This document shows positions 36,090-59,966 of a stretch of 64,000 nucleotides of DNA, in pieces. A program made the translations under genes and the position numbers. Source of the stretch: Clavulina sp. PMI_390 (taxonomy: Eukaryota > Basidiomycota > Agaricomycetes > Cantharellales > Hydnaceae). The stretch is taken from assembly GCA_015039315.1 (NCBI GenBank), contig WIDE01000065.1:93502-157501 (forward strand). Reading direction: 5' to 3'. The number at the start of each line of letters is the position of its first letter. Position 1 is the stretch's first letter. The notes below the pieces were generated by a model, which ran no database searches, was not told where the DNA came from, and saw only the letters and a program-made list of their open reading frames with translations.

Positions 36090-39000
36090 ATGTCGACGAC
36101 ATCGAGCCCAGTCAGCACTTTTGCTGTTTCTGAGACCCCGGGCGGTCATTCGGACCATCACCACTATGAGCCTCATCCATTGCGACGAGCAACAACTTTC
36201 GTCTCATCAGGAAGCGACGATGAGGAAGACGATGCCGCATTTCATGACACTGTCTCGGTCATAACTGGATCATCCGAATCGGTAGGTTCCAACTATACTC
36301 TTCTGCCTCAAGCCTTCGTAACCCCGCTTTTTTTTGCCATGGGTCCAGACTAGGGTCGATACGGACGAAAGTGACACTCTTGCCGAAGATTTGGAACGCT
36401 TAGACACGCACACTGAACTTTCTCGTGTTGTAGGTCAAGCCATAATCACTCGCTAACTAGGCACTGATCAGCATGAACCCGGGCCCCAATCATACTAGCA
36501 CGACTTCTTAGAGCCGGATGTCGACTCCGAAGGACCTGAACTAGAGTACCCAGCTGGACTACCAGGTCAGGTAGCACCGTCTATTTCCGGTTCAGAAGGG
36601 TCATCTATCGCACGCTCCGCAACCTATGCCACCACAGCGACAATAATTAGCTTCGGGGTACTGCAGCTCTCCTTGTCTGAGCTATGTGATTTGATCACCA
36701 TTCGCTCTTCGCTAGCCAACGCGGAAATCCTTTCTGTGGAATCTTATTCACAACGAGTGAACTTCATTACGCATCGCTTCCTTATTCTTCGCCTGCGAAG
36801 GCAGGGGAGGAAAGACGTTTACCTGAGACTGGATCGAAGGGCTGCTAGTGAAATAAGCCTAACGAAGCTGGTGTTTTCGGGAGGTCACACCGTAGCACGG
36901 GATGAGGTGAGTACGAGCAGCACTACTTGATTTTATAATAACCCCCAAAGCACACTTCCAGGCCAACCTCTCGCCGACGAAATCAAGATTGATTGAGAAA
37001 TCTGCAAAGGCCGAGAATCATCTCAGCTTTTCGGCTCCCAACTTTCCAAGGCTGGGAGAGCTCAAGCTGTTCTTGGACGTGATCCGGGAAGAGCTACTCC
37101 TTTACAAAGCTTGGCCGGTCAGTGTCTCTACCGGACTACTTTGTCGTCCTATAGCTGACGTGCCCGGTTCCAGGAAAATTGTTGGTTTTTCTGTTCGCTT
37201 GTGCAACAATACTTGGCGTCTTCAGTGTTTAGCACGTTTGACTTTGGTCATCTCATGCACACCACACTCGCGAAGCAAGTGCGGATGAAGGTTTACGAGC
37301 GAATTAGTCGAACATTCCACCAACCCCAGCTCCCAAGTGTGAGTTTCTCGTATTAGCCAATTGCGAAGATCGTGCTAACCTCTCTCATTCTAGATTACTA
37401 GAATTCTCGAAGCTCTGAAAGCTGCAAATGATGTACCTGAGTCTTTGACGAAGAATTTCACAAGTGTGATGGTAATGGTATTCTACTGAATCAGTAACAC
37501 TTCTTGCTCACCGCTGTCTTTGTACATAGAAATATTCCCTGAAGTACGATCAACAGCAGCTCGAGAATACTGACGGCAAACGGCCCGATGACGTCGGCTT
37601 TTTTGCTCCAGCGCTTTTGGAATTCAACCGGGAACTTGTTTCGGCTGGCAAACTTCGATGGGCGACTCTACTGGGCCCATACGCCATCCAGCTGCATCGC
37701 GATATTGTTGGGGGCCTCACCTTGGGTTGGAAGACGCTCCTGACAGAAGCGCTTTACGACTACTACCTAAACCTCCAAAAATGGTGGCGTATGGAGGAAG
37801 CGCAAGCTGCCATAGATGAGGCCGTGAAGCTACGAATGGAACGTTATTTGAAGAAGCCAGATCGTCATCGCGAGCGACTACTAGATTTCAAGATCGCCCA
37901 ATACACAACGCGCTCGTCTTCTCGAGATCCTGCCGGGGCGGTAGGCATGTCCAAGGACGCAATTCCACTTTGCGAGATGCTAAATCGCCAAGAGAATGGC
38001 AATAGAACCATTGTGCTTGGTCGTATTCATTGCCATCACGCTCAACACCTTGCTCTACTTCTTCGATTTGATGACGCGTGTCGTGAATACGAAATTGCCC
38101 TTCAATATCACCGGCTTCTTCTCACCCGCAACCCCAATAACTCGGACTATATCACAGCCGTTGCAGTGGACCTTTATTTCATGACTGATGCGCTAATGGG
38201 GGCTTTCCGACTAGAAGAAGCGCTGACCGCGATTAACGAGGCTCTCGAGCTTTGGGCAAAACGGTTTACTAGCGAAAATCCTCCGCCGCTCACCCTCAAG
38301 CTTGATAATACCAATACTCTGTCCCGAAAAGCCGATGTCTTGGGCAGGCTGCAGCGCTTCGACGAGGCATGCGTTGTAGATCTAGACGTTATCAAAGGGT
38401 ATCGGGAACTACCCCAATAACTCGGACTATATCACAGCCGTTGCAGTGGACCTTTATTTCATGACTGATGCGCTAATGGGGGCTTTCCGACTGGAGGAAG
38501 CGCTGACTGCGATCAACGAGGCACTCGAGCTTTGGGCAAAACGGTTTGCTAGCGAAAATCCTCCGCCGCTCACCCTCAAGCTTGATAATACCAATACTCT
38601 GTCCCGAAAAGCCGATGTCTTGGGCAGGCTGCAGCGCTTCGAGGAGGCATGCGTTGTAGATCTAGACGTTATCAAAGGGTATCGAGAACTATACTCCGCA
38701 GACCCCTTGAAACATCCAGAGGGTCAGATAGCGAGCGCCCAGGATGCATATGCTGACCACTTGTGGTCTTGCAGTCGCTTCCAGGATGCTGTGGACGCGT
38801 GGAATCAATCCCTCACTACTTCCTCTGCATTGGTCCAGAGACGGCTCGCTCAACTCGAGGAGGACTACGGGATGTGGCTCGCAGAATATTGTTTGGCCTT
38901 GAACCGGCGTAGGATCACCCTTGATCAAATGGCCGCTCGTGCAGACCAAGTCACCGTAGCGGAAACATGTAGCTCCAGTTTCCGCCAGGCACCCGCGCTT

Positions 39001-45186: not shown

Positions 45187-48100
45187 TTAGTGCCCCACCA
45201 TCGGACCAGGGCCTCCGGGACCCTGAGGTCCAGGTGGAGGTCCTCCGCCTTCGAATGGATGTGCTCCGGGGCCACCTTGAGGTACTGGTGGTTGAGGAGG
45301 CATCATCATGTACGGAACCGCATGAGGAACTGGATGAAAGAACATGCATTGTCAATACCGGAAGAAGAATGCAAGAGTCGGAGGAACAATGACCGTACGT
45401 TGAGGGCTCTGATGGAACGCATATGCATGCTGCTGCATTGGTGTCGGCGGCATTGATCCTCTTGGAGGAGCACCACCGTTCACATTGGGGGGATAGGCAC
45501 CTGGAGGTGGCGGCGACATGTATCCTTGTGGAGGGAGCCCGTTGGGTCCCATTGGTGGCGGTGACATGAAGGCTACGTGAGGCCGTTAGAACTTAGCCCA
45601 GCTGATGAAGGGAGTGAACAAGCCGAATGATGACACTCACGATGAGGGGCTCCCTGGTGAGGGAACTGAACATGCTGTACGAATGGCGACATGTACGCGC
45701 CAGGAGGCGCACCAGCTGGCATATGCATCATCGGCTGCCCAGGAACCTATCACGAGTCCAGCATATATCAGCATACAATCGCTGGAAGTATCCACCTATA
45801 AAAGCGACTTACAGCACCAGGGTAAGGATACGGGTAGTACATCATCTGATAAGGCGGCTGAGGCTGAGGAGGCTGCTGCTGCTGCTGTTGTTGCTGCTGT
45901 GACCTCGCCGCGGGATCCTCGTCGTAGGGTGGAGGAGCTCCCTGTGGTGTAGGCGGCTGGGGTGGGCCTCCTGGCTGCTGTTGCTGTGGCGGAGGCTGTT
46001 GGCCTGGAGGAGGGATATGTGGAGGCTGGTTTGGTAGTTGATGGGGCATAGGCATATTTTGGGGCATATTGGATGGTCCATTGTTTGTGTTGACGGTGGT
46101 GGGTGGGGGGAAGAGGGTAATGTATTTTTTGCCATTGTATGGCCAAGTTGGGGCTGCTCAGAGTAGGTTAGCGTCAGATAAGTAGCTACGACCTAGGAGC
46201 ATACCGATTGTGGGCGCTTCGGGAACTTTGTTGCGGAAGATATTGAACTCGTCCTTGATATGGACCGCAGGCGTCATCTTGATCACAACTTTGCCAAAGA
46301 ATGGATGATCCTATCGAAGATGGATTAGATCTCATAGGAAGCTCTGGCGAACGAGGGTCGAGCTTACTGCCACAGGCTTGGGTTCTTGCCGCACAGGCGC
46401 TGAGCTTGAAGGAGTACTAGTGGGAGGCGTACCAGAGGGTGATGAGGTACCCTAGAAATTAGGAAAATGATATGGGATCAGCATCAGGCCAAAACAGCTG
46501 CTCTCATCAGCAACTCACTGGCTTGAAGGCAGAAGCATTCGGGTTCGGCTTGAACGACGTAGCCTTGACATTCAGCTTGAACGCAGACGACGTCGTGCTG
46601 CTCGTCGGGCTATTCGGGACCTCCTCCGCAGGCGTAGTGAGGCCTCCTCCAGTTGACGTCGCGCTCGCAGTCCCATTCGTAGCACCACCATTCTTCGCGC
46701 CAGGACTCCCGCTCACCACAGGGCCGCTACTAGTGACCGTGGTCGTCGAGTCGGTCGTCGACGATCGCTTCCCCTTGAAGGGCGGGATCGCCTGAATCGA
46801 CAGCTTTTTCCACGGAGCACCAGTAGCAGGAGCCGTAGGCGCGCCACTAGCTGCTGCAGCAGCCTTGACGGCCAACTTGGCTGCAGCAGGTGATGCAGCA
46901 GCCACAGGGCCTTGAGGACGAGTCATGGTCGTCGTGTTGGTGATGCCCACTGAGGCAAGGGCGTTGCTGGAAGATGAGGATGCGCCTAGAGCAGCCTTGT
47001 TGGTCGCGGGTGTAGCAGTGGCGGATGTGATAGTGGGAGTGAGGCCAGCAGCCTTCATTGTCACAGTCGACGCGTTGGAGCCGATAGCACGAGCCTTGGA
47101 TGACTGGGCTTCACGCGCAGACTTCTCCATAAGCTCCTTTTGCTTCGATTCGTCCTTTGCCAAAATGGGAACCAGATCTTCTGGGATTGGGCGATTGAGC
47201 TGTTCATAATTGCATGCGTCAGGTGAGGTTGGGGAAGCAGATCGTGAAGTGAGTGGGGGTAGTGGAGGATACACGCATACCTTGAACTCCTGAGAGAACT
47301 TGAGTAGGTCCGCTAACCGGTTATCCTTCTCCTTCTTTACGATCTGCTGCTTCTTCTGGACCAACCTGTTCTTCTCACTAGTGACAAAGTCACGGAAGTT
47401 ATCCACAAGATCCTGAAACATATCATGAACCAGTTAGCTCACTCGACGAAGAGTCTAGATGCTGCAAACTAACCTTGGGCGCAGCACCGCCAGCAGTGGT
47501 AGGAGCGGCTGATGTGGCACCGTTCGTCGGCTTCTTGGCTGGCTCAGTGGGCGCGGCCACGGGAGGAGTGACAGAGACAGCCACAGGTGTGGTTGACGCT
47601 GGCGATTGCGACTGCGATGTAGAGAGCTTTGCGCGTGCTCCAGGAGGGACATAAGCCCCAGCGCCTCGCACGACAGTACTATACCTGGAGAAGTAGTACG
47701 GCGGTAGGGTACAGAGCGGAAGCAAAGTCAGGCATGCGATCGTGGAGAATGTCGAGTAAATTGTGACATTTGACGTACTTGTCTTCTTCGTTGACGCCGC
47801 TGTCATCAATCACTCCTCGCTCTTCAGCGATATGCGGGTTGCTCGACGATTGCTAAAAAAACACCCATCATTCCAAAGATAGAAATCAGCATCATGGACA
47901 GCAATATCACAAAGGCCCCCCATAGATGTCATGGGAAGAAAAAAAAGCAGACGAAAACACACCGAGTTAATCTCATTGGCGATCTGGTTCGCCTGTCGTT
48001 CGCGCTCCTTGTAGTCCGGCCGTGACCGATCGAGCTTGGTCGTATACAACTCCTCATCATAGTTCGTCGTGACGCCAAACAGCTGCTGGTTCGCCGAGAA

Positions 48101-49094
48101 CTGGTCCCATCCGCCAGTGCCCGTGCCCGCACCTCCACCAAACGTAATGTCGTCACCACGCCCAGAGGGAGTCGGGCCTTGGCCGCTCCCACCTGCGGGG
48201 GGCGCGCTGTCGGACCAGGCTTGCAGCTCGCGCTCGCGAATGGGCTTGCCGTTTTGTGAGATGTCGGTATCGGTACGGAATCCTGAAAATGCAAGGGAAT
48301 GCATATATAGTGGTCAGCCACAAAAAACCAAGAAATCATATCAAATTAAGATTGAGATCCACATCTACCCTGCACTGCACCACAGCAACAAAAGCAGGGA
48401 GCGCGGGAGAGGAATATATCTGATAACCAGAGCGGGGGGGCAGAAAGACGCACCTTTTGAGGGGCCTGATGGTGATGATGCATTCGTTCCGTTTGGTGCT
48501 AGAGGAGGGTCCGTCCTAGTCCAGTTGAGGAGTTGAACAGCGGGGAAGCGCATCGACTCTTTCTCTGGGATATTGGGAGCCGACAGGTCTCGATAGTTGC
48601 GTAGTGAGAATCCGCTCCCGTCAGCGTCGATCGAGTCGACAAAGCCGCTGTGCCTGGCGCCGTTGCGCGTCGTGACGATAACATATGAGCCCTGGAGGGT
48701 TGAAGCGGGGGAGAGGAGCGCGGTTCGGATTTACGGGGCAGTTAATGATATTGTTCAGAACAGATTGACACACAACATACCATGGCATTCTCGATTCCAT
48801 GGAGAGGACCTTGGTTAGGGTGCGAGTTGTAGTGCTGGCCATTGCCTCCGCCGGCGTTGTTGCGGTTGGCGTGATGAGATTGGACAAAGTTGGGAGGCCC
48901 GCCTCTCCATGCCCCGCGCCTACGAAATTTAGAGCACGACCGACCCCGCTGGTTAGGCACACCCACACACACTACCACTATGCACAGCATAACCTATCAG
49001 TGAAACGCACGAACCTATTAGGACCACCACCACCGCCGACAGATGGATTGCCGTCCTTGCGGCCTTTGTTGTTCTGCCTCGCAGCGACAGCCAT
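45187..49094 (-). CDS. PBP1: Ataxin-2/Pbp1 family RNA-metabolism protein
   Basis: A cytoplasmic mRNA regulator found in stress granules, which binds poly(A)-binding protein. The start at 49094 gives MAVAARQNNKGRKDGNPSVGG. The Sm-like ATX domain contains GSYVIVTTRNGARHSGFVDSI; the LsmAD domain contains WDQFSANQQLFGV then YDEELYTTKLDRSRPDYKERE. A coiled, charged segment follows (NFRDFVTSEKNRLVQKKQQ). Near 46519-46581 lies a PAM2 motif, LNVKATSFKP, followed by a second overlapping unit NPNASAFKP; PAM2 docks on the MLLE domain of PABP. The C-terminus has APTWPYNG, a Q9 tract, and a Pro/Gly/Met-rich end GPMVGH. About 14 introns. Sequence from about 46790 to 46090 has a relative inside the kinase gene at 56233-59966. 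Confidence 0.9.
45870..45900. repeat. CAG/CTG trinucleotide tract encoding polyglutamine in ataxin-2
   Basis: An interrupted run of GCTGCTGCTGTTGTTGCTG type on the plus strand encodes about nine Gln on the minus strand, directly before a Pro/Gln-rich segment. Confidence 0.85.
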
Positions 49095-49997: not shown

Positions 49998-50683
49998 CTA
50001 TGAAGTCTCTTCATCCACAAGCGGCGTGTCGTCGGAATCGAACAGCGCGCCCCAATGCGACGCGACGGCCAACTTTGCGGCCTCTGTCTCTTCACGAATC
50101 ACGCGTAGATCTTTCGCCTTGCGCGTCGTAATCTCCTCTTCGTCAGTGAGGAGGTACATGAGCTTGAGAGAATGGGTGATCGTCAGAAGCGAGTCGGCAG
50201 CGAGAACCTATATAGCAAGATGGAGATCAGGCATGCACCAAACGAAGATATTGCCCTCAACGACTCACCATATTCTCAGCTAGTGCTTGAGCCTGAAAAG
50301 CATCATGCCGTGCATGATACTTGTCCTTAGGGACCTTGATCTTGTCCTCTTCATTCAGCGACTTGAGTCGATTCTCTTCCCTCTTCGACGGATCAGGCAT
50401 CTTCAACTACACCATCCCATCAAAAACCAGCCCATCTTCATTGCCTAAGCAGTGGCTCTGGATAACTCACCAGCGCAGTCTGTACAAGCGCAGTCATACC
50501 CGTCGCCAAACTCTTCACGTCATGGTCGACTCTCTTATGCCAGTCCTCCGTGATTTGTGCCAGATATTGCTCAGATGTTTGTTCTTGGGTAGAAGGGTTG
50601 ATGTTTCGTCTGATAAGCCCAGTGTCGAGCGGGCCACGACGAGAAACATCGCTTCGGAGGGGTCGTTGCTGCTGTTGTGACAT
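49998..50683 (-). CDS. MED22: Mediator complex subunit 22 (Med22/Srb6/Surf5)
   Basis: A subunit of the Mediator head module linking activators to RNA polymerase II. Three exons of about 71, 48 and 69 residues. Exon 1 starts MSQQQQRPLRSDVSRRG and contains EDWHKRVDHDVKSLATGMTAL, matching the Med22 N-terminal helix. Exon 2 (about 50269-50406) reads LKMPDPSKREENRLKSLNEE to DAFQAQALAENM. Exon 3 reads VLAADSLLTITHSLKLMYLL and ends VDEETS. Complete and in frame, with an expected length near 188 residues. It is head to head with kinase A; the starts are 118 bp apart, so the pair probably shares a bidirectional promoter. A partial second copy lies at 55072-55720. Confidence 0.85.
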
Positions 50684-50801
50684 TGTTCGAAGCGTGGGAA
50701 CATATAACAGACGCTGGACTTCGAGGCAGTACTCGTCATTGACCATAAACCTTGAGGCACCTCCAACCCGGAGCGACTCTCAGCTGAAGCTAAAAAAAAT
50801 C
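50684..50801. promoter_or_regulatory. Short bidirectional promoter between Med22 and kinase A
   Basis: Only 118 bp separate the two divergent starts. The equivalent gap at the duplicated pair (55721-56232) is 512 bp, and only the first dozen or so bases next to the Med22 start are clearly alike. Confidence 0.5.
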
Positions 50802-53800
50802 ATGGAAATAGATCAAGGGCTAGAAGGGAGCCTACATGATTGTGACACTACTTACCTCGCTTATCCGGAGTTGAGGGAGCATCTTCAGAGCCATCCATTT
50901 GTTGATGCTGTGTTGCACCTATTCTCTTGTGGAACTGGCGTGAAAGAAATTGAAAACTATTCTTCCTTCCGTTCGGGTGTCCTGGAGCTGTCGGAGCCCG
51001 AAATACAAAGTGTGGCGACCACTATACAGAATGTAAGAGCTATACATTCTCGATCTCCTTACCAACACGAATATTGATTCCGCATTGCGACTAGTGCATT
51101 GATGAGTGCAAGCTTTCTGACGCAGTGGCAGCCCTTAGGCTCCGACTTCTGCAAGATATATGTTCGCTGTCTGGTGTGATACCTAATATTTACTGGAGAA
51201 CTGGGGTGTCCAAAGGAAAACTCATTAACCATGGCGGCGAGGCTGATATCTACCGAGGTAAATATAGCGGATCCTCTGTGGCTATCCGGAAGTTTCGTGT
51301 CTCAGGGATACGCGGGCCGACGGGCAACGAGGGTAGATCTATACCACAGGTGTGGTGCTTGGAACGGACATCGCGAAGAAATTTTACTTACTTACAACCT
51401 TGTTCTAGCTTATAATCCGAGAAATTATTTCTCACTGGCAACTTCGACATCACAACGTTGTTGCCCTCTATGGAGTTTGCAGGTTCAAGGATGACTCTGC
51501 CACCAACGAGGAAGATTCTGATGAAGGTGATGACCCAACACCTGAGGGGTCACCTTCCATGGTGCTTCAATACGCCAAAAATCCTTCCGCGATGACATAT
51601 CTGAAGTCTCCTGATGGTTCTGGGTGTTTTCTTAAAGTGGTATGCCATTATTATTGTTGCGATCAGGGATATTATAGGACTAATCTCACGTTGGAAGGTG
51701 AGAGGCGTTGTCGATGGCCTTGTATATCTGCATTCCCGGACTCCCCCCGTTATTCATGGAGATCTTCATGATGTAGGTCGGCCAGTAGCATGTTCACCTG
51801 TTCACTATCTGACTACATGTCGGAATCAGGGGAATATTCTCATCACTGCTACAGGCGATGCACTCATATGTGACTTTGGTCTCTCGCGTATCCGACATGA
51901 CATCACTCGCACAAACACAGCAATTCATGAAGGTGGTCGCTCCAGATTCGTGGCTCCTGAGTTATCAAGTGGACCCAACCAATTCCGTAGCAATGAGGCT
52001 TCGGACGTCTACTCCCTTTCAATGACCATTTATTCTTTGGGAGTACATAAACCGCCCCTCTGGAACGTTGAGCACAATGCACAAGCTTCGAGGCTATTGG
52101 AAGCAGGAAAACGTCCAGGCTGCGAATCAGACTCTCAGTCTGCAGGCGATGTTGAGGAGTTTATCGGGCTCGACCTTGCCCGCAGCGTGAAGCTATGGTC
52201 GCTGTTGCGGCGGATGTGGGTGGATGCACCGTCAGAGCGAATCACTGCCAGTGAAGTCCGTGAAGAGCTGAGATTAAGCGGCTTATTTCCACACTCTCCT
52301 CCATTTCTTCCAGCTGACAGCCAGTCGCAAAACTCCCGTCTTGATCACCTCCCTCAACAGCATGGCCTCACTAGTCTTGATTCCTCTTCCCGTAGATCTG
52401 GTTCTCCCGCAGAAATTCAGACTCCCCACAACATTATCCCTCTGCGCAGTGAAGGAGGCGGCCATTTTTCCCCGCTTCACCAGATCCTTCTTAATACACT
52501 TCCTCAGCCCTCATCTCAATATACCCGGTACCACCCGCGTGCAGATGACCTAGGGAGAAATGGGGTCTTCAACAAATCCACCTTTGACCCACAAGATGTT
52601 CAGCAACGAAAGGGAGATCTAAGGGGCCTAGAGACTCGATTTGGTAACTTCTCGCTTGCTGCTGCAGGAAGTGTTACCTACGATCCTTCGCCCCCCATTA
52701 CATCGCCTCCGCTTTCCTCTATGTCTTCAGGACATCACGCGAAAGGCGTCAATTATATTCGAGGTGGTATTGGCCAGAATCTTCCAGTAAATTCCACAGT
52801 TCATCTTGGCCGGTTTTGTCCTGATGTGTTCTTTTATTTAGATGATTACAAGTCCCGTTTTCAGCCCTCATTACGCGCATAAAACTGCGGGAAACCACAT
52901 TTCTGGCATGAACGGGCATACAGCTGGCGCCGCTGCTGGGATCGGTGGTCGCGAAGGCCCGCCGCAAGTGCATATGCATCAAGAGCAGACGCCTATTCCT
53001 CCGAGCAATAATGCCGCTGCATCGACGTCAAATTCTAATCCCAATCCAATGTCTATTCAAAGTCAGACACCTTCCCAGCCAATCCAACCTGCTCTTCATA
53101 ACCGTTCGTCCTCGACGCATTTATCGCAGCGGTCAATGACGTTTCAGCCTGCGACGAACCACCCACTGACTTCTGTTACCGCCGACCCCGTTGTTACTAG
53201 TCGCGAACGCGAAGCTAGCCAAGAGCGCGAAGGTCCAGCGGACCGCTCTAATTCGGTGCCACGCTCTCCTTCTGTACAAGCCTCGGAACCGCCCTCGTCC
53301 CCCTGGTCGTTCGCCTCGGTCGCATCGACCCACCTGGACTTCCCTCCCCATAATGCTGCACCATCTATTTCAGATGGCGATGCCTCCCCAGCCACAAGCA
53401 AATGGGTCATCCAGCATGGTACCACTGGTGGTGCCAGTGGTGCTGGGAATACCACCGAGCGCCGAGACACTTTGCAAGATGTGAACGAACTAGTGTCGGA
53501 CATTGATTTGGTGAGGGAATCCATGAATGTGAGTGGCAGCATTAGTAGTGGTGCTAGCGAGGGGCCTAGACCAAACGGCCCGCCTTCTCCCTCGATTTCC
53601 GTGCAACACCCGAATCTCTGGCTCCCTGGCACGCACGGCGATGTTGGCTCGAAGATCGGTATTGGCGGTATATACTTTGATGGCATGATCCCTCGTGCCG
53701 ACTCGCCTATCAGCATGGCCTTTGAGGGGGCGCTCGCTGAGAAGCGCGAGCGCCCGGACCCTCATGCATTTGCGTTCAAGGCTCCTAGCGGCCCGGACCC

Positions 53801-54933
53801 GCCTACTAGTGCGTATAAGAGTGCTGGGCCCCAGGTGGCGAGTACTGATAGGGCAGCGGTGGAGCAGCTAAACGAGCATAAGCCATTCGAAACGTTCGGT
53901 CTCAGTGGAAATGCCCCAGCTTTCGCCCCGTCGGAGCAGAGCGCACAATATCAGTCAAGTCGGTTGGACAATAGTATTAGTACTGAGGCATGTTTAGCAC
54001 AGATTTTACTGGATACCTTGTCTGAAGTGCTGACGGCGGTGCTCCTAGATGGTGCGACCATCCCCATTTGAATCTGTTCCTTTCTCAGCTGCGCCAGGAC
54101 GTTTTGGCCCTCTTGGTCCAACCAGCGCTTATAGCCGTGCTACTTCCAATGCCCAGTCCTACGCACCCTCTTCGGTCGATGGCGGTATTTCCTATCCATT
54201 GACGAACGCGGGCTCTACCCTCGCAATCAAGCCACCGAGATTTCCCAACGGCCAAGGCCGCCATCGTGGCTCGATTTCCCTCGGCCCGGTCCTTGTTCTG
54301 GTGGGTCCTTTCAGCGGTGGCGCGAGTGTCTTTGGTGGGGGCTTGAGCTATCCCCCAATCCCAAATGCGCTTGCCCGACCTCCTTCCCCACGCAGCCACT
54401 CGAGAATGTCAAGCTATTCGTCCACCCGCTCGTTCCCTACAACGAGTCCGCCGAGCCCACTAACCCCGCCGTTCGGGTCAGATCCTATTACTAGTGGGCC
54501 GATGACCCACGGGATTGGCTTGTCGATCCCAGATGGAGCTAGGAACCCTCTCGGCAACGGAATAGGAAACGGCAACGTGGCTCCCGGTCCTAGGTCGGTT
54601 CCGAACGCTCTCGGGCTGTCTGGTCTACCTCAAATGGCGCACCAGCACAACCTATCTCAATCCTCCACCTCGTCGCAGTTCTCAGAGCCCTCGACGCCCA
54701 TCTCGTTCCAACCTCTCATTCGCGTGCTCGAGAAGCTCCCTGCACAGGGCCTGTTTGTACCTCTGCGTAGTGCGGTAGGCAGTGAGCTTCGCCAGGGCGA
54801 TCCTCATGTTTACGATAAGCTTGGAGGAGGGACCCGGAAGTTCAAGGAGAATGCTAGTGCAGCAGAACGTGCCGGACTAGTAGTGTTCATTGGAGGCAGC
54901 TTAGGCAAGGAGAAGATTTCACTAATCAAATGA
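50802..54933 (+). CDS. Kinase A: protein kinase fused to a LOTUS/OST-HTH-like tail, apparent frameshift
   Basis: Exons read as 50802-51032, 51095-51349, 51409-51639, 51698-51772, 51840-52796, then 52842 onward. An N-terminal helical region (YPELREHLQSHPFVDAVLHL) precedes a kinase domain: P-loop HGGEADIYRG, beta-3 VAIRKF (Arg, not Lys), IIREIISHW, HNVVALYGV, catalytic HGDLHDGN, CDFGLSRI, FVAPEL. After the C-lobe a Ser/Pro-rich tail of about 700 residues follows. It ends in FQPLIRVLEKLPAQGLFVPL, DPHVYDKLGGG, AAERAGLVVFIGGSLGKE, which resembles the LOTUS/OST-HTH domain ending fungal NYN-domain proteins; no NYN nuclease domain is present. The frame changes between about 53974 and 54049 and no GT-AG pair of suitable phase explains it, so the last 294 codons may not be expressed. 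Confidence 0.7.
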
Positions 54934-55071: not shown

Positions 55072-55720
55072 TTATAGGTGCAATCCTGATTGCGTACATA
55101 GTGGATATGGTAATAATTTAATATTCGACGCAGTCCCGCATAATTTTGAAGTGCGAGGGCCTTTTTTCCGATGCTCAGTCTTTGCATTGCGAACTATGGG
55201 AAACGGAATCGCGGCATCTTCATCCACAGGCGGGGTCTCGTCACAAGCAAACAGTGCCTCCCAATGCGACGCAACAGCCGACTTGGCCGCCTTCATCTCC
55301 TCGCGAATGACTCGCAGTTCTTTGGCCTTGCATGTTGTGATTATCTCCTGGTCAGTGAGAAGGTACATGAGCTTGAGCGAGTGGGTGATCGTCAGAAGCG
55401 GGTCTGCAGTGAGGACCTGTGTATAGTTAGACCTGTAGCACGCGAAGATAATAATCTCGATCAAAACCAGCCCATCTTCATTGCCTCAGCAGTGGCTCTG
55501 GATAACTCACCAGCGCAGTCTGCACGAGCGCAGTCATACCCGTCGCCAAACTCTTCACGTCATGATCGACTCTCTTATGCCAGTCCTCCGTGATTTGTGT
55601 CAGATATTGCTCAGACGTTTGTTCTTGGGCAGAAGGGTTGACATTGCGTCTGATAAGTCCGGTGTCGAGCGGGCCACGACGGGAGACATCGCTTCGCAGA
55701 GGTCGTTGCTGTTGTGACAT
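55072..55720 (-). pseudogene. Partial Med22 copy lacking exon 2
   Basis: Exon 1 (55720-55511) and exon 3 (55416-55072) are very similar to Med22 at 49998-50683: MSQQQRPLRSDVSRRG, EDWHKRVDHDVKSLATGMTAL, then VLTADPLLTITHSLKLMYLL. The whole 48-residue middle exon is gone; a single 94-bp intron (55417-55510) carries the left part of old intron 1 and the right part of old intron 2. Both junctions are phase 0, so a 184-residue frame survives. The original stop is lost and the protein runs on about 43 residues past the conserved end. It lacks a central Med22 helix, so normal Mediator assembly is doubtful. A dominant interfering product is possible but speculative. Confidence 0.75.
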
Positions 55721-56232
55721 TGCTCGTAGCGTGGGAAAAGTAACCAAGTCTCGATTCTTCGCTCGATTCTGATAGCGCTGTCTCTTTTTGACGCGATGAT
55801 CATCTTACATGGACGGGAACTCATCAGGCGATCAAGTATGAGGCGCCATAGCTTGCAAATGTGGATGACATCGCTCGACCAAATCACTAAACTGGCTGGA
55901 GCCATGAGATTTGCATGTGTGCTAATCTTCTTGATCGCCAGCTGGTCCACCAGTCTCATCTTTCACCCCATTGAAGTTGATATATGGCTGCTCAAATTCA
56001 TCTATGAGCCAGCTCTGTTTTCTGGCGCAAATGCACCCCTTTGAGCCCCGTATTCAGCGAAGTATAGCTAGCAGAAGCTAAATTTTGCCCTCATAAGCAG
56101 CTACGACCAGGCAACTGCTGCCGCTCTTGTGACAGCGTTTTTCGCAAAGAAAATGTCACAGGTAATACATCTTGAGCACCGCCCACCGCCCACCAACTCT
56201 TAGCCAGGGTGATAGATAGATAACTCGCGCAA
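55721..56232. promoter_or_regulatory. Divergent region between the partial Med22 copy and kinase B
   Basis: 512 bp, about 400 bp longer than the matching spacer of the original pair, so sequence has been gained here or lost there. An open frame at 55796-56044 has a hydrophobic stretch but no splice or family support. No terminal inverted repeats noticed. Confidence 0.4.
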
Positions 56233-59200
56233 ATGGACCAAGCACCAGGAAAGCAGCATCATAGCCATGTCGACAACACTGTATATCCCTCTTATCAAGA
56301 GCTGAGGGAACATTTTCGGAGCCTTCAATTCGTTCATACTGTGTTGCACCGCCACTTCTTCCCCCGTGGAGCTCCCCACGAAGAAAGTGAGGGCTGTCGG
56401 TCCTACGAGTCCTTTCGTTCGGGTATTCTAAAGCTGTCAGAGCGCATTATACAGAGCGTTGTGACTGCTATGCAAAAGGTGCGGGCCATGCTTTATCGAT
56501 CGCGGCGCTAGTGCTAATACCACTTCCTACTCTGGAATTATTGGTATCTAATCCAGTGTATTGACAGCTGCAGGGTTTCCGCCGGGGTGACGGCTCTTCG
56601 GCTCCGGCTTCTGCAAGATATCTGTTCATTATCGGGCGTGATCCCGAAACCTTACTGGATGACCGGGGTATCCAAAAGAGGACTCATTGGTGGCGGCGCT
56701 GAGGCAAATATTTACCAAGGGAAGCACAATAGAGGGCCTGTAGTTATTCGGGAGTTTCGTGTTATGGGGAACGACGGATGGACGGGTGATGAGGTTAGAT
56801 CTATCCCACAGGTGCGGCCCTTGGGATAACATAGGTTTTGAGAAAGCAGATCGACCTAATCCCAAGTTATCTAGCTTATCATTCGGGAAATTATCTCCCA
56901 CTGGCAACTTCGACATCCCAACGTAGTTGGCCTCCTAGGAGTTTATAGAGTGAAGGATGACTCCGACAGCGAAGAAGATTCTCATGCAAATGATGTACCA
57001 CTCCCTGAGCGACCGCCTTGGATGGTGTTACAATACGCTAAGCATTCATCTGCACTGAAATATCTGAAGTCTCCTGACGGTGGGCGTTTTCTTGAGGTGG
57101 TATGTTGTCATTGCCATTGTTATTGCTGCGCTTAGGCGCGCTGTCGGACTAATGAATTATTGGAAAGGTGAAAGGCATTGTTGATGGTCTTGTTTATCTA
57201 CACTCCCGAACTCCCCCCGTTATTCATGGGGACCTTCATGATGTGGGTTGGTTGGCAACATGTTCTTTGAACAGCTATTGACCATTTTTTGGAACTAGCG
57301 GAACATCATCGTTACTGCTTCAGGTGATGCCCTCATATGTGACTTTGGTCTCTCGCGTATCCGACACGATATCACCCGCACACACACAATAATCCATGAA
57401 GGCGGTCGTCTCCGGTTTATTGCTCCAGAGTTATCAATGGGACCCATGCAGTTCCGTAGTAATGAGGCATCCGACATATACTCCCTTGCAATGACTATTT
57501 ATCGCCTAGGAGTACACAAATTGCCTCTCTGGAACATTGCAGACGATAGACAGGCTGTGAAGCTATTAGAAACTGGAATACGTCCAGGCTTCATATCAGA
57601 GTTGCAGCCTGTGAGTGAGGGCGAAAAGTTCATTGGACTTGATATTGCTTGCAATATGAAGCTATGGCTGCTACTACAGCAGATGTGGGTGCATGTGCCG
57701 ATGGAGCGGACCACCGCTAGTGCAGTCCGTGATCAGCTGATTTCAAGTGGATTGATTCCGGCTTCCCCTCCCCCAGTGACCCAAGTTTCCCCATTGCTTC
57801 CACCAGTTCATATGACAGAACAAGGCCTGGAAAAGGGGCCGCTTGACCCGCCACCCATCAGCTTGAACAAAGATAAATCTCTTTATCCTCCTCGCATTCC
57901 ACTTAGCGGCATGGCATTGCCGTTGGTCACTGGAGGCTCATCACGGTTCACCCCAAATCTGCGGGCCTCGGCCCCCCCTTTCAAGATAGAACGATCGTTG
58001 GCTGTTCAATTAACAACCGCAGCCGCTCGTGCTAGTGCTGGTGCCGTAACGGATGGAAGAGGAGAATTGACGCCTGGAGTGACAAATGGCAGCAAAGGTG
58101 GAACTCCGAGCGGAACATCCACCGCTGTGCCACTGTCCGCCTCTGCAGATGGGATCCCAAACAGCTCAAAAATTGACACGAAATTGTCTGAGTTCAAACT
58201 GAATGTCACTGCTATGTCGTTCGAGCCAAACCCAAATGCTCCGGTTTCTCGGCCGAAACTGAAGGCTTCTGCTTTCAAGCTGAACCTGGATGCGCCTACT
58301 TTTCGACCAAAACCAAATATCCCAGATTTTGAGCCGAAACCCTATGCTCAGGGTTTCGAGCGGAACCCACATCCTTCTACTTTGGGGCCGAACTCATACA
58401 ATCTCACCTCTGAACACAACCCATATGCTCTTCCTTCCGAGCCAAACCTTGACAATTATGCTTTTGACCCGAACCCATATGCTCCGGCTCTTGAGCCAAG
58501 CCCATACACTGATGCTTTTGTGCCCAACCTAGAAACTCCTACGTTCGAGCCAAACCCACCATATTCTCCCACTTTTGAGCTGAACCCATACACACCTACC
58601 TTCGAGCCCATATCATATACTCCTGCTCTCGAGCCGAGACCATACACAAATGCTTTTGAGCCCGACCTAGGTACTCCTACGCCTGAGCCAAACCCACCAT
58701 ATTCTCTCGATTTCGAGCCGAGCCCATATTCTTCTGCTCTTGTGCCAAGCCTGGACAATTCTGGTTTGGGGCCAAACACATACCCTCCGGGTTTTGAGCC
58801 CGACCCATATGATCCTGCCTTTGAACCAAACCTAAAAAATTTTGCTTTCGAGCTGAGTCCAGAGGCCCCTACATTCAAGCCAAACCCATATGCTACTCCT
58901 TTTGAGCCAAACCCAAAAGGTTCTGCTTCCAAGCTGAACTCAACTGCTCCTGCTTTATCATCGAACCTAGAAGCCACTGTTTTCAAGCTGAACCCATACG
59001 CTCGTAATTTTGAGCCGAAATCAGACGGCTCTGTCAATGCTGATAGGTCCAAATCAGATGCTCCTCCTGTTTTCGAGCCAAGTCTAGATGCTCCTGCTTT
59101 CGAGCCAAGCCCATACACTGCTACCTTCAAGCCAAACCCATATGCTCTTACTTTCCAGCCGCGCCCATACGCCGATGTTTTTGGGCAGAATCTAGGTGTT

Positions 59201-59966
59201 CCAACGTCTGAGCCAAATCCACCATACACTCCTAATTGCGAGCTGAACCAATATTCCACTCCTTTTGGGTCGAACTTAGACAATTCCGCTTTTGAGATGA
59301 GTCCATACCCTCCAATTTTTGAGCCAGACCTAAATGCTCGCCCTCTCGAGCCGAGCCGACGTGCTTCGTACTTTGAGCTGAACCCAAATGCTCCTGCTTT
59401 TAAGCCAAACATAGGTCCTCCTGCTTCTAAATTGAACCCAAATGCTCCTATATTCAGCTTAGGTCTGGCTACTTCTACTCGCAGACCGAACCCAATTGCC
59501 CCCACTTTCAAGCTGAACCCAAATGCTTCTGCTTTCAAAGTAGTAAGCCAATGGAATGCCTTTTCGCGTTTTCGTCTTTGTTCAGTGATTGGCTTTGTAT
59601 TCCTCGTATTTTCTAGGGCATATTGCCACCCGATGGCACCTCTTCCGGCCCAGCCGTTGTGAGGCAGGAGCTCAAGCCTGTGATGGTGGGCCCCGCTCTT
59701 GCTTGGTCTTCACATCGCTACATCGGAATTGATTCGTCCTTGATAGAGTCATCCATTCTTTGGCAAGACGGTGGTCAAGATGACTCCTGAGGTCTATATT
59801 AAGTATGATTTTAATACCTTCCGCAGCAAAGTTCCCAAAGCGTGCACGATTGGTACGTCCTTTGCTTGAGCATTCAGTTGTGATCCTAACGCAAAACGAC
59901 TCGTAAATAGCTCCAACTTGGCCCTATAGTGGGCAGACATATGCCCTCTCGCCTTTTGTAACGTAG
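56233..59966 (+). CDS. Kinase B: protein kinase fused to an ataxin-2 C-terminal half with a giant PAM2-like array
   Basis: Eight exons: 56233-56478, 56557-56811, 56875-57099, 57168-57242, 57299-59542, 59617-59685, 59747-59852, 59911-59966; in frame throughout, 1,091 residues. Residues 1-120 are a helical region shared with kinase A. The kinase domain has GGGAEANIYQG, beta-3 VVIREF (Arg for Lys), IIREIISHW, HPNVVGLLGVY, HGDLHDRN, CDFGLSRI, FIAPEL. From about 57960 the protein aligns with ataxin-2 (PPFK then RS, EVPNS/GIPNS, FKLNVTAMSFEP). Nearly 48 nine-residue units related to PAM2 follow (58192-59542), then VVRQELKPV, HPFFGKTVVKMTP, FNTFRSKVPKA and APTWPYSG as in ataxin-2, stopping before the polyQ region. 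The three tail introns sit exactly where ataxin-2 has them. Confidence 0.85.
58192..59542 (+). repeat. 27-bp coding repeat array, about 48 PAM2-like units
   Basis: A near-continuous string of 9-residue units with consensus (N/S)P(Y/N)xPxFEP. At least four keep every PAM2 hallmark (Leu, Asn, Ala, Phe, Pro): LNVTAMSFEP, LNLDAPTFRP, LNPYARNFEP and LNPNAPAFKP. Others lack the Leu or the final Pro. A higher-order repeat is visible: PYTDAF...NLETPT...NPPYSPTFEL, PYTNAF...DLGTPT...NPPYSLDFEP and PYADVF...NLGVPT...NPPYTPNCEL. One irregular unit (KSDGSVNADRSKSDAPPVFEP region, about 59020-59075) interrupts it. Confidence 0.9.

What the first reader, a model, noticed from the sequence alone, without database searches (positions are those of the whole stretch)
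56233..59966. Protein kinase fused to the C-terminal half of ataxin-2, with the PAM2 segment expanded to about 48 units
Seen directly: one in-frame spliced gene runs from a kinase domain (HGDLHDRN, DFG) into sequence that aligns with the neighbouring ataxin-2 on both sides of a repeat array. Ataxin-2 has two overlapping PAM2-type units here; this gene has about 48. PAM2 is known to bind the MLLE domain of poly(A)-binding protein. Inference: a multivalent PABP-binding (or PABP-mimicking) kinase-like protein, possibly condensing with mRNPs. I know of no described protein of this layout.
Basis: partly seen in the sequence, partly recalled or inferred. Interest (0 to 1): 0.92.

Follow-up and report, generated by a model that had tools for sequence, protein, structure and literature searches.

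The report
Kinase fused to ataxin-2 PAM2 array
A coral-fungus gene joins a kinase-like domain to a piece of the mRNA regulator ataxin-2 whose poly(A)-binding-protein docking motif has multiplied to 49 copies, many of them decayed, and it belongs to a small family of kinases that carry different borrowed tails.

Summary
NCBI holds the same protein from Clavulina sp. PMI_390. I count 49 units of about nine residues, but "48 PAM2 motifs" overstates it: 5 have all canonical anchors, 3 more fit the leucine-less eRF3 PAM2-C form, 12-15 pass looser rules. Pfam PAM2 exceeds its cut-off only near the C-terminal end (1 of 10 tiles). Stops are avoided and the Phe-x-Pro-Asn core looks constrained; PAM2's alanine drifts. 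The kinase evolves under constraint (pairwise dN/dS 0.21-0.34), but the ATP-anchoring lysine is arginine in nine of nine close paralogues, so it may be a pseudokinase. New here: paralogues carry different tails: Zn2Cys6 (two), a Skn7-like receiver, the tail of an NYN protein, and this array. Best reading: a kinase-like module addressed to poly(A) mRNPs by a partly functional multivalent PAM2 tail. I had no expression or binding data.

The parts
56233..59966 (+). Fusion gene, 8 exons: 56233-56478, 56557-56811, 56875-57099, 57168-57242, 57299-59542, 59617-59685, 59747-59852, 59911-59966
   Evidence: GT-AG introns and open frame; NCBI P0001 equals the model from M80 (start 56470) and sets the exon 5 end at 59542
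56677..57727 (+). TKL-like kinase domain, introns included (aa 123-410); beta-3 Lys is Arg (VVIREF); HGDLHDRN, DFG, APE kept
   Evidence: Pfam PF00069 1.3e-22; AlphaFold: 20 of 34 ten-residue blocks of P0001 11-350 at pLDDT 80 or more; PDB matches include TNNI3K, RIPK2, CTR1, B-Raf
57965..58192 (+). Linker derived from ataxin-2 (secure from about 58070; the start is my alignment)
   Evidence: 49% aa identity to the window's ataxin-2 over 63 aa, protein aa 525-586, which runs into the first array units; dN/dS about 0.37 for linker plus the first 16 array residues
58193..59539 (+). Array of 49 units of about 9 aa (27 bp), consensus F-E-P-N-P-Y-A-P-A; 5 canonical PAM2 and 3 strict eRF3 PAM2-C-like sites
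   Evidence: Segmentation, motif counts, codon and stop tests, Pfam PAM2, PSSM; 82.8% nt to ataxin-2 over 64 bp at its start
59617..59966 (+). Ataxin-2-derived C-terminal exons 6-8 (HPFFGK...APTWPY), intron positions and phases as in ataxin-2
   Evidence: 80.7% nt over 114 bp at exon 7; aa identity 0.68 and dN/dS about 0.33 for exons 7-8
45187..49094 (-). Complete ataxin-2 (Pbp1) gene, source of the tail; two overlapping PAM2 units FKLNVKATSFKPNPNASAFKP
   Evidence: 14-exon model, 942 aa, identical to NCBI P0002; LsmAD 1.3e-28, SM-ATX 16.9 bits, below its cut-off of 29.8
50802..54933 (+). Sister kinase gene (copy A) with a different captured tail, from an NYN-domain gene on contig C244; in frame across the intron 52787-52841; a later splice (about 54.0 kb) is not settled
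   Evidence: Tree 96/96; tail 82-89% nt to C244; frame and splice options; NYN PF01936 in the donor ORF

Best explanation
A real, constrained protein-coding gene made in the Clavulina lineage by joining a duplicated TKL-like kinase gene to a duplicated 3' part of the neighbouring ataxin-2 gene, followed by 27-bp amplification of its two overlapping PAM2 units. The kinase fold (perhaps a pseudokinase, with ATP binding altered by Lys-to-Arg in beta-3) is the effector or scaffold; the long tail, predicted disordered, is its address. Some 8 to 15 of the 49 units, of the canonical and of the eRF3 PAM2-C form, should dock MLLE of the fungus's poly(A)-binding protein, each with micromolar affinity if they behave as eRF3 does, and with higher avidity together, so that the protein collects on poly(A) tails. 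Sharing of residues caps occupancy at roughly 10-12 sites under the looser rules. Shown: gene structure, origin, array, conservation pattern. Inferred: expression, MLLE binding, mRNP recruitment, kinase state.
For: Kinase and array share one exon, and NCBI holds the same protein. The array is flanked by ataxin-2 exons with conserved intron positions. PAM2 model hits above cut-off near the C-terminal end. 14 windows score 8 bits or more against 0.10 in shuffles; 15 relaxed sites, at most 12 not overlapping. Constraint on columns 1, 3, 4 together (Phe, Pro, Asn; 0.006), the residues that eRF3 PAM2-C uses in place of Leu (PMC2854688, parts 1-2 of 4 read). The genome has one MLLE hit, in a gene that reads like PABP by eye, with KITGMLLE intact. 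Kinase dN/dS 0.21 against C86 (pairwise, not branch-specific). Everything after the kinase has pLDDT around 30 and no predicted secondary structure, although the array had no real relatives in the 13-row alignment.
Against: Ala7, called invariant in PAM2, is kept in 21 of 49 units and evolves as if neutral (0.67). Column 3 alone is not significantly constrained (0.19), and the set 1, 3, 4 was chosen after inspection. Codon-position diversity is nearly equal (0.45, 0.42, 0.455) and all-column amino-acid diversity is no lower than neutral (0.35). Only 1 array window scores like a real ataxin-2 unit; 7 of 10 tiles have no PAM2 hit and 1 of 10 passes the cut-off. No homologue in another species among 7988 scored candidates. 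No expression or binding data. [quoted passage not shown]
Confidence: 0.45

Rival explanations
1. The tail is mostly drifting: a captured disordered segment kept open because the exons after it need the frame, with PAM2 function lost in most units and PABP binding weak or incidental. The kinase module does the work.
For: Neutral-looking diversity over most columns and at Ala7; only 1 window at ataxin-2 level; only 5 of 49 canonical motifs; no PAM2 hit in 7 of 10 tiles.
Against: Phe/Pro/Asn constraint (0.006 for columns 1, 3, 4, chosen after seeing the data; 0.023 for the PAM2-defined set 1, 3, 4, 7). PAM2-like sites far above shuffle.
Confidence: 0.35
2. The array acts as a sticker-rich disordered scaffold: Phe and Tyr at about 9-residue spacing (57 aromatics in 449 aa, net charge -16) drive condensation whether or not MLLE binds, with ataxin-2 ancestry only historical.
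For: Composition 20.5% Pro, 12.7% Phe+Tyr; Tyr at column 6 in 21 of 49 units, absent from the ataxin-2 units; predicted disorder.
Against: Column 6 shows no excess constraint. Asn4 constraint (0.038) suggests a motif, not aromatics alone.
Confidence: 0.12
3. A PABP sink: the tail titrates MLLE and so competes with ataxin-2, eRF3 and PAN3, changing translation termination or deadenylation when the gene is induced.
For: Same motif class; overlapping PAM2 raises affinity (1.3 uM for the eRF3 pair against 3.9 and 3.1 uM singly, PMC2854688).
Against: I have no regulatory or expression evidence; the idea does not need the conserved kinase.
Confidence: 0.08
4. Annotation or assembly artefact, or an unexpressed pseudogene.
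For: Single strain; no transcript seen here; NCBI and I disagree on the start codon.
Against: One contig and about 30% divergence of units from their consensus, so a collapsed or misjoined repeat is unlikely; no stops or frameshifts; low kinase dN/dS.
Confidence: 0.05

Closest known systems
eRF3/GSPT1 overlapping PAM2-N/PAM2-C (PMC2854688)
   Same: Overlapping 9-residue register; F1-x-P3-N4...A7...F10-x-P12 without Leu; Phe shared between neighbours
   Different: Two units, not 49; GTPase, not kinase; Ala7 kept there, often lost here
Ataxin-2 / Pbp1
   Same: Direct ancestor of the tail: linker, two-unit PAM2, C-terminal exons and introns
   Different: Fusion lacks LSm and LsmAD; 49 units, against one or two in 117 of 120 listed ataxin-2 proteins by the same regex (that regex finds 11 in the fusion)
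PAN3 (PMC4158885, passages)
   Same: Pseudokinase fold plus PAM2 in one chain
   Different: PAM2 and zinc finger N-terminal of the pseudokinase, with coiled coil and CTD; the kinase part here resembles TKL kinases, and PAN3 is not among the 60 PDB rows shown (of 884)
Upa2 of Ustilago maydis (PMC9249222, passages)
   Same: Multi-PAM2 fungal scaffold (four motifs)
   Different: Dimerising scaffold of endosomal mRNA transport, four motifs only; no kinase domain is mentioned in the passages seen
Reported fungal ataxin-2 chimeras (PMC12898128, passages and section 2.18 seen)
   Same: Ataxin-2 joined to other domains, including a SCYL1-like inactive-kinase-related part in Aspergillus felis
   Different: Those add domains to ataxin-2 orthologues and the authors favour readthrough; here a genomic copy of the 3' part is joined to a kinase

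Membership tests
PAM2-containing protein | Pfam PF07145 above cut-off | tested here: met
   aa 959-990 28.8 bits against 20; of ten 45-aa tiles over the array one passes (23.9), two score 15.9 and 7.3, seven give nothing; full-length queries of fusion and of ataxin-2 gave no PAM2 hit
PAM2-containing protein | L3 (or F1+P3), N/S4, A7, F10, P12 | tested here: met
   Canonical 5 and strict eRF3 type 3 of 49 units; the other units fail at least one anchor
PAM2-containing protein | Binds MLLE | not testable with these tools
   An MLLE with KITGMLLE exists in the genome
Ataxin-2 / Pbp1 orthologue | LSm and LsmAD domains | tested here: not met
   No hit in the fusion; the neighbouring gene has LsmAD and a below-cut-off SM-ATX
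PAN3 | PAN3-type pseudokinase, coiled coil and CTD | tested here: not met
   Nearest structures shown by sequence and fold are TNNI3K, RIPK2, CTR1, B-Raf and others, not PAN3 (60 of 884 rows, 50 of 1972); order of parts reversed
Active protein kinase | Beta-3 (VAIK) lysine | tested here: not met
   Arg in 9 of 9 close paralogues (8, C112); activity itself not testable here
Active protein kinase | HxD...N and DFG | tested here: met
   HGDLHDRN and DFG in the fusion; also in copy A (HGDLHDGN) and P0003

The most novel reading that the evidence does not exclude
Clavulina has a clade of TKL-like, possibly inactive, kinases in which one constant module is repeatedly given new C-terminal addresses copied from the fungus's own regulators: ataxin-2 (amplified into a 49-unit PAM2 array), an NYN-domain protein, a Skn7-like receiver and Zn2Cys6 factors. 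This would be an evolving set of plug-in signalling adaptors, comparable in logic (recalled) to integrated domains of plant immune receptors, with the PAM2 array the most multivalent PABP ligand that I know of.
Probability: 0.35. Interest if true: 0.85.

Novelty: new variant of a known kind. Interest (0 to 1): 0.72.

Why it matters
It is a natural test of how many PAM2 motifs a protein can use: a gradient of intact, Leu-less and decayed units in one chain, in the same overlapping register as eRF3. It also catches domain capture in progress: two sister kinases (96/96 support) carry different tails, and for three members an identified or likely source gene lies in the same genome (ataxin-2, the C244 NYN gene, and more tentatively a Skn7-like gene). 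If the tails steer the kinase module, the family makes the question of how new signalling connections arise directly testable.

Tried and rejected
Considered and dropped: (1) all 48-49 units as PAM2: rejected by motif counts, PSSM and Pfam tiles. (2) PABP mimicry: the Pfam scan of the fusion listed only kinase-type families and TCAD9. (3) PAN3 membership. (4) Frameshift at exon 1: an apparent phase problem went away once the acceptor before CIDSC was used, as in copy A and in NCBI's model. (5) A first neutral simulation from a consensus root was unsuited to consensus identity, because the simulated tips drift away from the root; replaced by per-column diversity tests. (6) Openness as proof of coding: one antisense frame has only 3 stops, so I compared all six frames with simulation; that frame is also low (0.008 fully neutral, 0.054 when + stops are lethal), so openness is supporting, not decisive. 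(7) A regex for the C-terminal ataxin-2 motif matched 20 of 119 ataxin-2 proteins and not the fusion; too narrow, not used. (8) Other tails: C53 gave no Pfam family beyond kinases at E 0.1; C251b was only read by eye; the tail of C251a was not examined, and its kinase C-lobe was missed by my script, so its row in the tree lacks that part. (9) Similar arrays: none outside this genome among 7988 scored candidates and only ataxin-2 within it. (10) A first ataxin-2 model had a one-base exon error, mended.

I also corrected the place of the 64-bp match: it spans the start of the array, not the linker.
Full report
What is there. The window is contig C264:93502-157501 of a 39.4-Mb, 301-contig genome. 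Two NCBI proteins identical to genes of the window name it Clavulina sp. PMI_390, a genus of Cantharellales. The gene at 56233-59966 has eight exons with GT-AG introns. NCBI's P0001 (1012 aa) equals residues 80-1091 of the model with exon 5 ending at 59542. Kinase C-lobe, linker and the whole array lie in exon 5, so the fusion needs no splicing assumption.

Origin. The window's ataxin-2 gene lies on the other strand (49094..45187, 14 exons, 942 aa, identical to NCBI P0002). Fusion and ataxin-2 match at DNA level at the start of the array (82.8% over 64 bp), at its last units (90.6% over 32 bp) and after it (80.7% over 114 bp); at protein level the match reaches back into the linker (49% over 63 aa). 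Intron positions and phases after the array agree. The fusion lacks LSm and LsmAD. The kinase part is the sister of copy A at 50802 (support 96/96); both copies lie beside a duplicated reverse-strand fragment (92.4% over 278 bp).

The array. An iterative segmentation gives 49 units, 45 of them nine residues long, consensus FEPNPYAPA. In PAM2 numbering as refined in PMC2854688 (parts 1-2 of 4 read), Phe is both position 10 of one unit and position 1 of the next. The consensus F-x-P-N-x-x-A-x-x-F-x-P is the Leu-less PAM2-C form of eRF3, in which Phe1 and Pro3 fill the Leu pocket. Counts: canonical set 5, strict PAM2-C 3, relaxed sets 12 and 15, of which at most 10 and 12 do not overlap, with shuffled means of 0.5 or less; the regex that finds 2 in the window's ataxin-2 finds 11. 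A PSSM from 111 first and 78 second ataxin-2 units gives 14 windows of 8 bits or more (shuffle mean 0.10; 3 in 54,587 aa of 59 other kinases), but only 1 at the 5% level of ataxin-2 units; 9 of the 14 lie in the first five or last six units. Pfam PAM2: 28.8 bits for aa 959-990, 9.5 for aa 566-605, ataxin-2's own piece 19.3, a Coniferiporia one 21.3. Tiled exactly, ten 45-aa pieces give 23.9, 15.9 and 7.3 bits in three and nothing in seven. Full-length queries gave no PAM2 hit for either protein, so absence in long queries says little.

How unusual. Of 120 listed ataxin-2 proteins (256 hits, the window's own included; Agaricomycete-like where named, some from unnamed metagenomes), the regex finds two units in 75, one in 42, none in 2 and three in 1. 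The array has no relative among 7988 scored candidates apart from itself and its ataxin-2, and none other was found in its genome. The highest number in papers seen here is four, in Upa2 (PMC9249222, passages).

Selection. Codon-position diversity among units is 0.45, 0.42 and 0.455, close to neutral. Against tree-based neutral simulations with lethal stops, the nonsynonymous positions of column 1 (Phe) give 0.027, column 3 (Pro) 0.19, column 4 (Asn) 0.038; columns 1, 3, 4 together 0.006 (chosen after inspection); columns 1, 3, 4, 7 together 0.023; column 7 (Ala) alone 0.67; all columns' amino-acid diversity 0.35. Zero stops in frame: 7 of 1000 runs along the tree, 16 of 1000 on terminal branches. 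Other frames hold 22, 24, 16, 3 and 27 stops; the frame with 3 is a caution. So the array is kept open and its Phe-x-Pro-Asn core looks held, while PAM2's alanine is not.

The kinase. Pfam Pkinase 1.3e-22. AlphaFold (mean pLDDT 47.9, pTM 0.43, 13-row alignment) gives a kinase fold at about P0001 15-345, with 20 of 34 ten-residue blocks at 80 or more, and no structure after it; low confidence in the array may partly reflect its lack of relatives. PDB matches by sequence and fold include TNNI3K, RIPK2, CTR1 and B-Raf. Pairwise dN/dS is 0.34 against copy A, 0.21 against C86 and 0.24 against C53 (kappa 2). The VAIK lysine is Arg in nine of nine close paralogues (8, C112) and in one outside them (C137; the pattern matched nothing in three further loci), while P0005 and P0007 from other fungi keep Lys. 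HGDLHDRN and DFG are kept. I call the catalytic state open.

The wider pattern. Nine N-lobe hits with E of 1e-8 or better define the close set (150 of 227 candidates scored), one clade against three outgroup rows (100/99; three inner forks are open, one outgroup row is long, and the C251a row lacks its C-lobe). Tails: C86/P0003 and C301 Zn2Cys6 (21.6 and 21.7 bits, cut-off 21; C301 after a splice I chose); C112 a complete receiver domain (90.2 bits, spliced by me), resembling a gene on the same contig that I take for Skn7 (47% over 91 aa; name recalled); copy A the 3' part of an NYN gene on C244 (82-89% nt; NYN 26.5 bits, cut-off 24.2), in frame across its first junction intron, with a later splice not settled; the fusion, ataxin-2. 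C264:937 is cut by the contig end, C53 and C251b show no recognised tail, C251a was not examined. dS between copy A's tail and its donor (about 0.35) is below dS between the two sister kinases (about 0.70), which suggests that this capture is the younger event; dS of the ataxin-2 pieces is 0.63-1.09.

Reading. Most likely the tail recruits the kinase module to poly(A)-bound PABP by avidity of some 8-15 usable units; the genome's MLLE hit keeps KITGMLLE. Expression, binding and activity are not shown. The main rival is that most of the tail drifts and PABP binding is incidental. The searches made in the held paper library listed no account of such a protein; a 2026 survey of ataxin-2 chimeras (PMC12898128, passages and section 2.18) lists other fusions.

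Noticed in passing
window 50802-54933 (+): Sister kinase gene joined to the 3' part of an NYN-domain gene whose source copy is on contig C244 (82-89% nt identity).
   Followed up: partly
L025 (C112:1079000-1084500): Paralogous kinase fused in frame to a complete response-regulator receiver domain (90 bits, spliced by me).
   Followed up: partly
L026 and L027: Two paralogous kinases with C-terminal Zn2Cys6 clusters just above Pfam's cut-off.
   Followed up: partly
L054 (C63:43500-47500): More distant kinase with a long same-exon tail that looks F-box/LRR-like by eye.
   Followed up: no
window 38131-38691: 280-bp tandem duplication, 97% identical, inside a TPR gene; not a multiple of three, and the reading frame breaks there.
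   Followed up: no
window 58456-59709 (-): Long open antisense frame (417 aa) under the array.
   Followed up: partly
window 50438-50779 and 55478-55804 (-): Duplicated reverse-strand gene fragments (Med22-like by recall; no Pfam hit at E 0.001) upstream of both kinases.
   Followed up: no
P0064 (Botryobasidium botryosum ataxin-2): A third PAM2 hit next to the usual two, perhaps a first step of the same kind of expansion.
   Followed up: no
ataxin-2 set (P0002, P0062-P0180): Two overlapping PAM2 units in 75 of 120; PMC4105795 (passages seen) describes the overlap for plants and for eRF3.
   Followed up: partly
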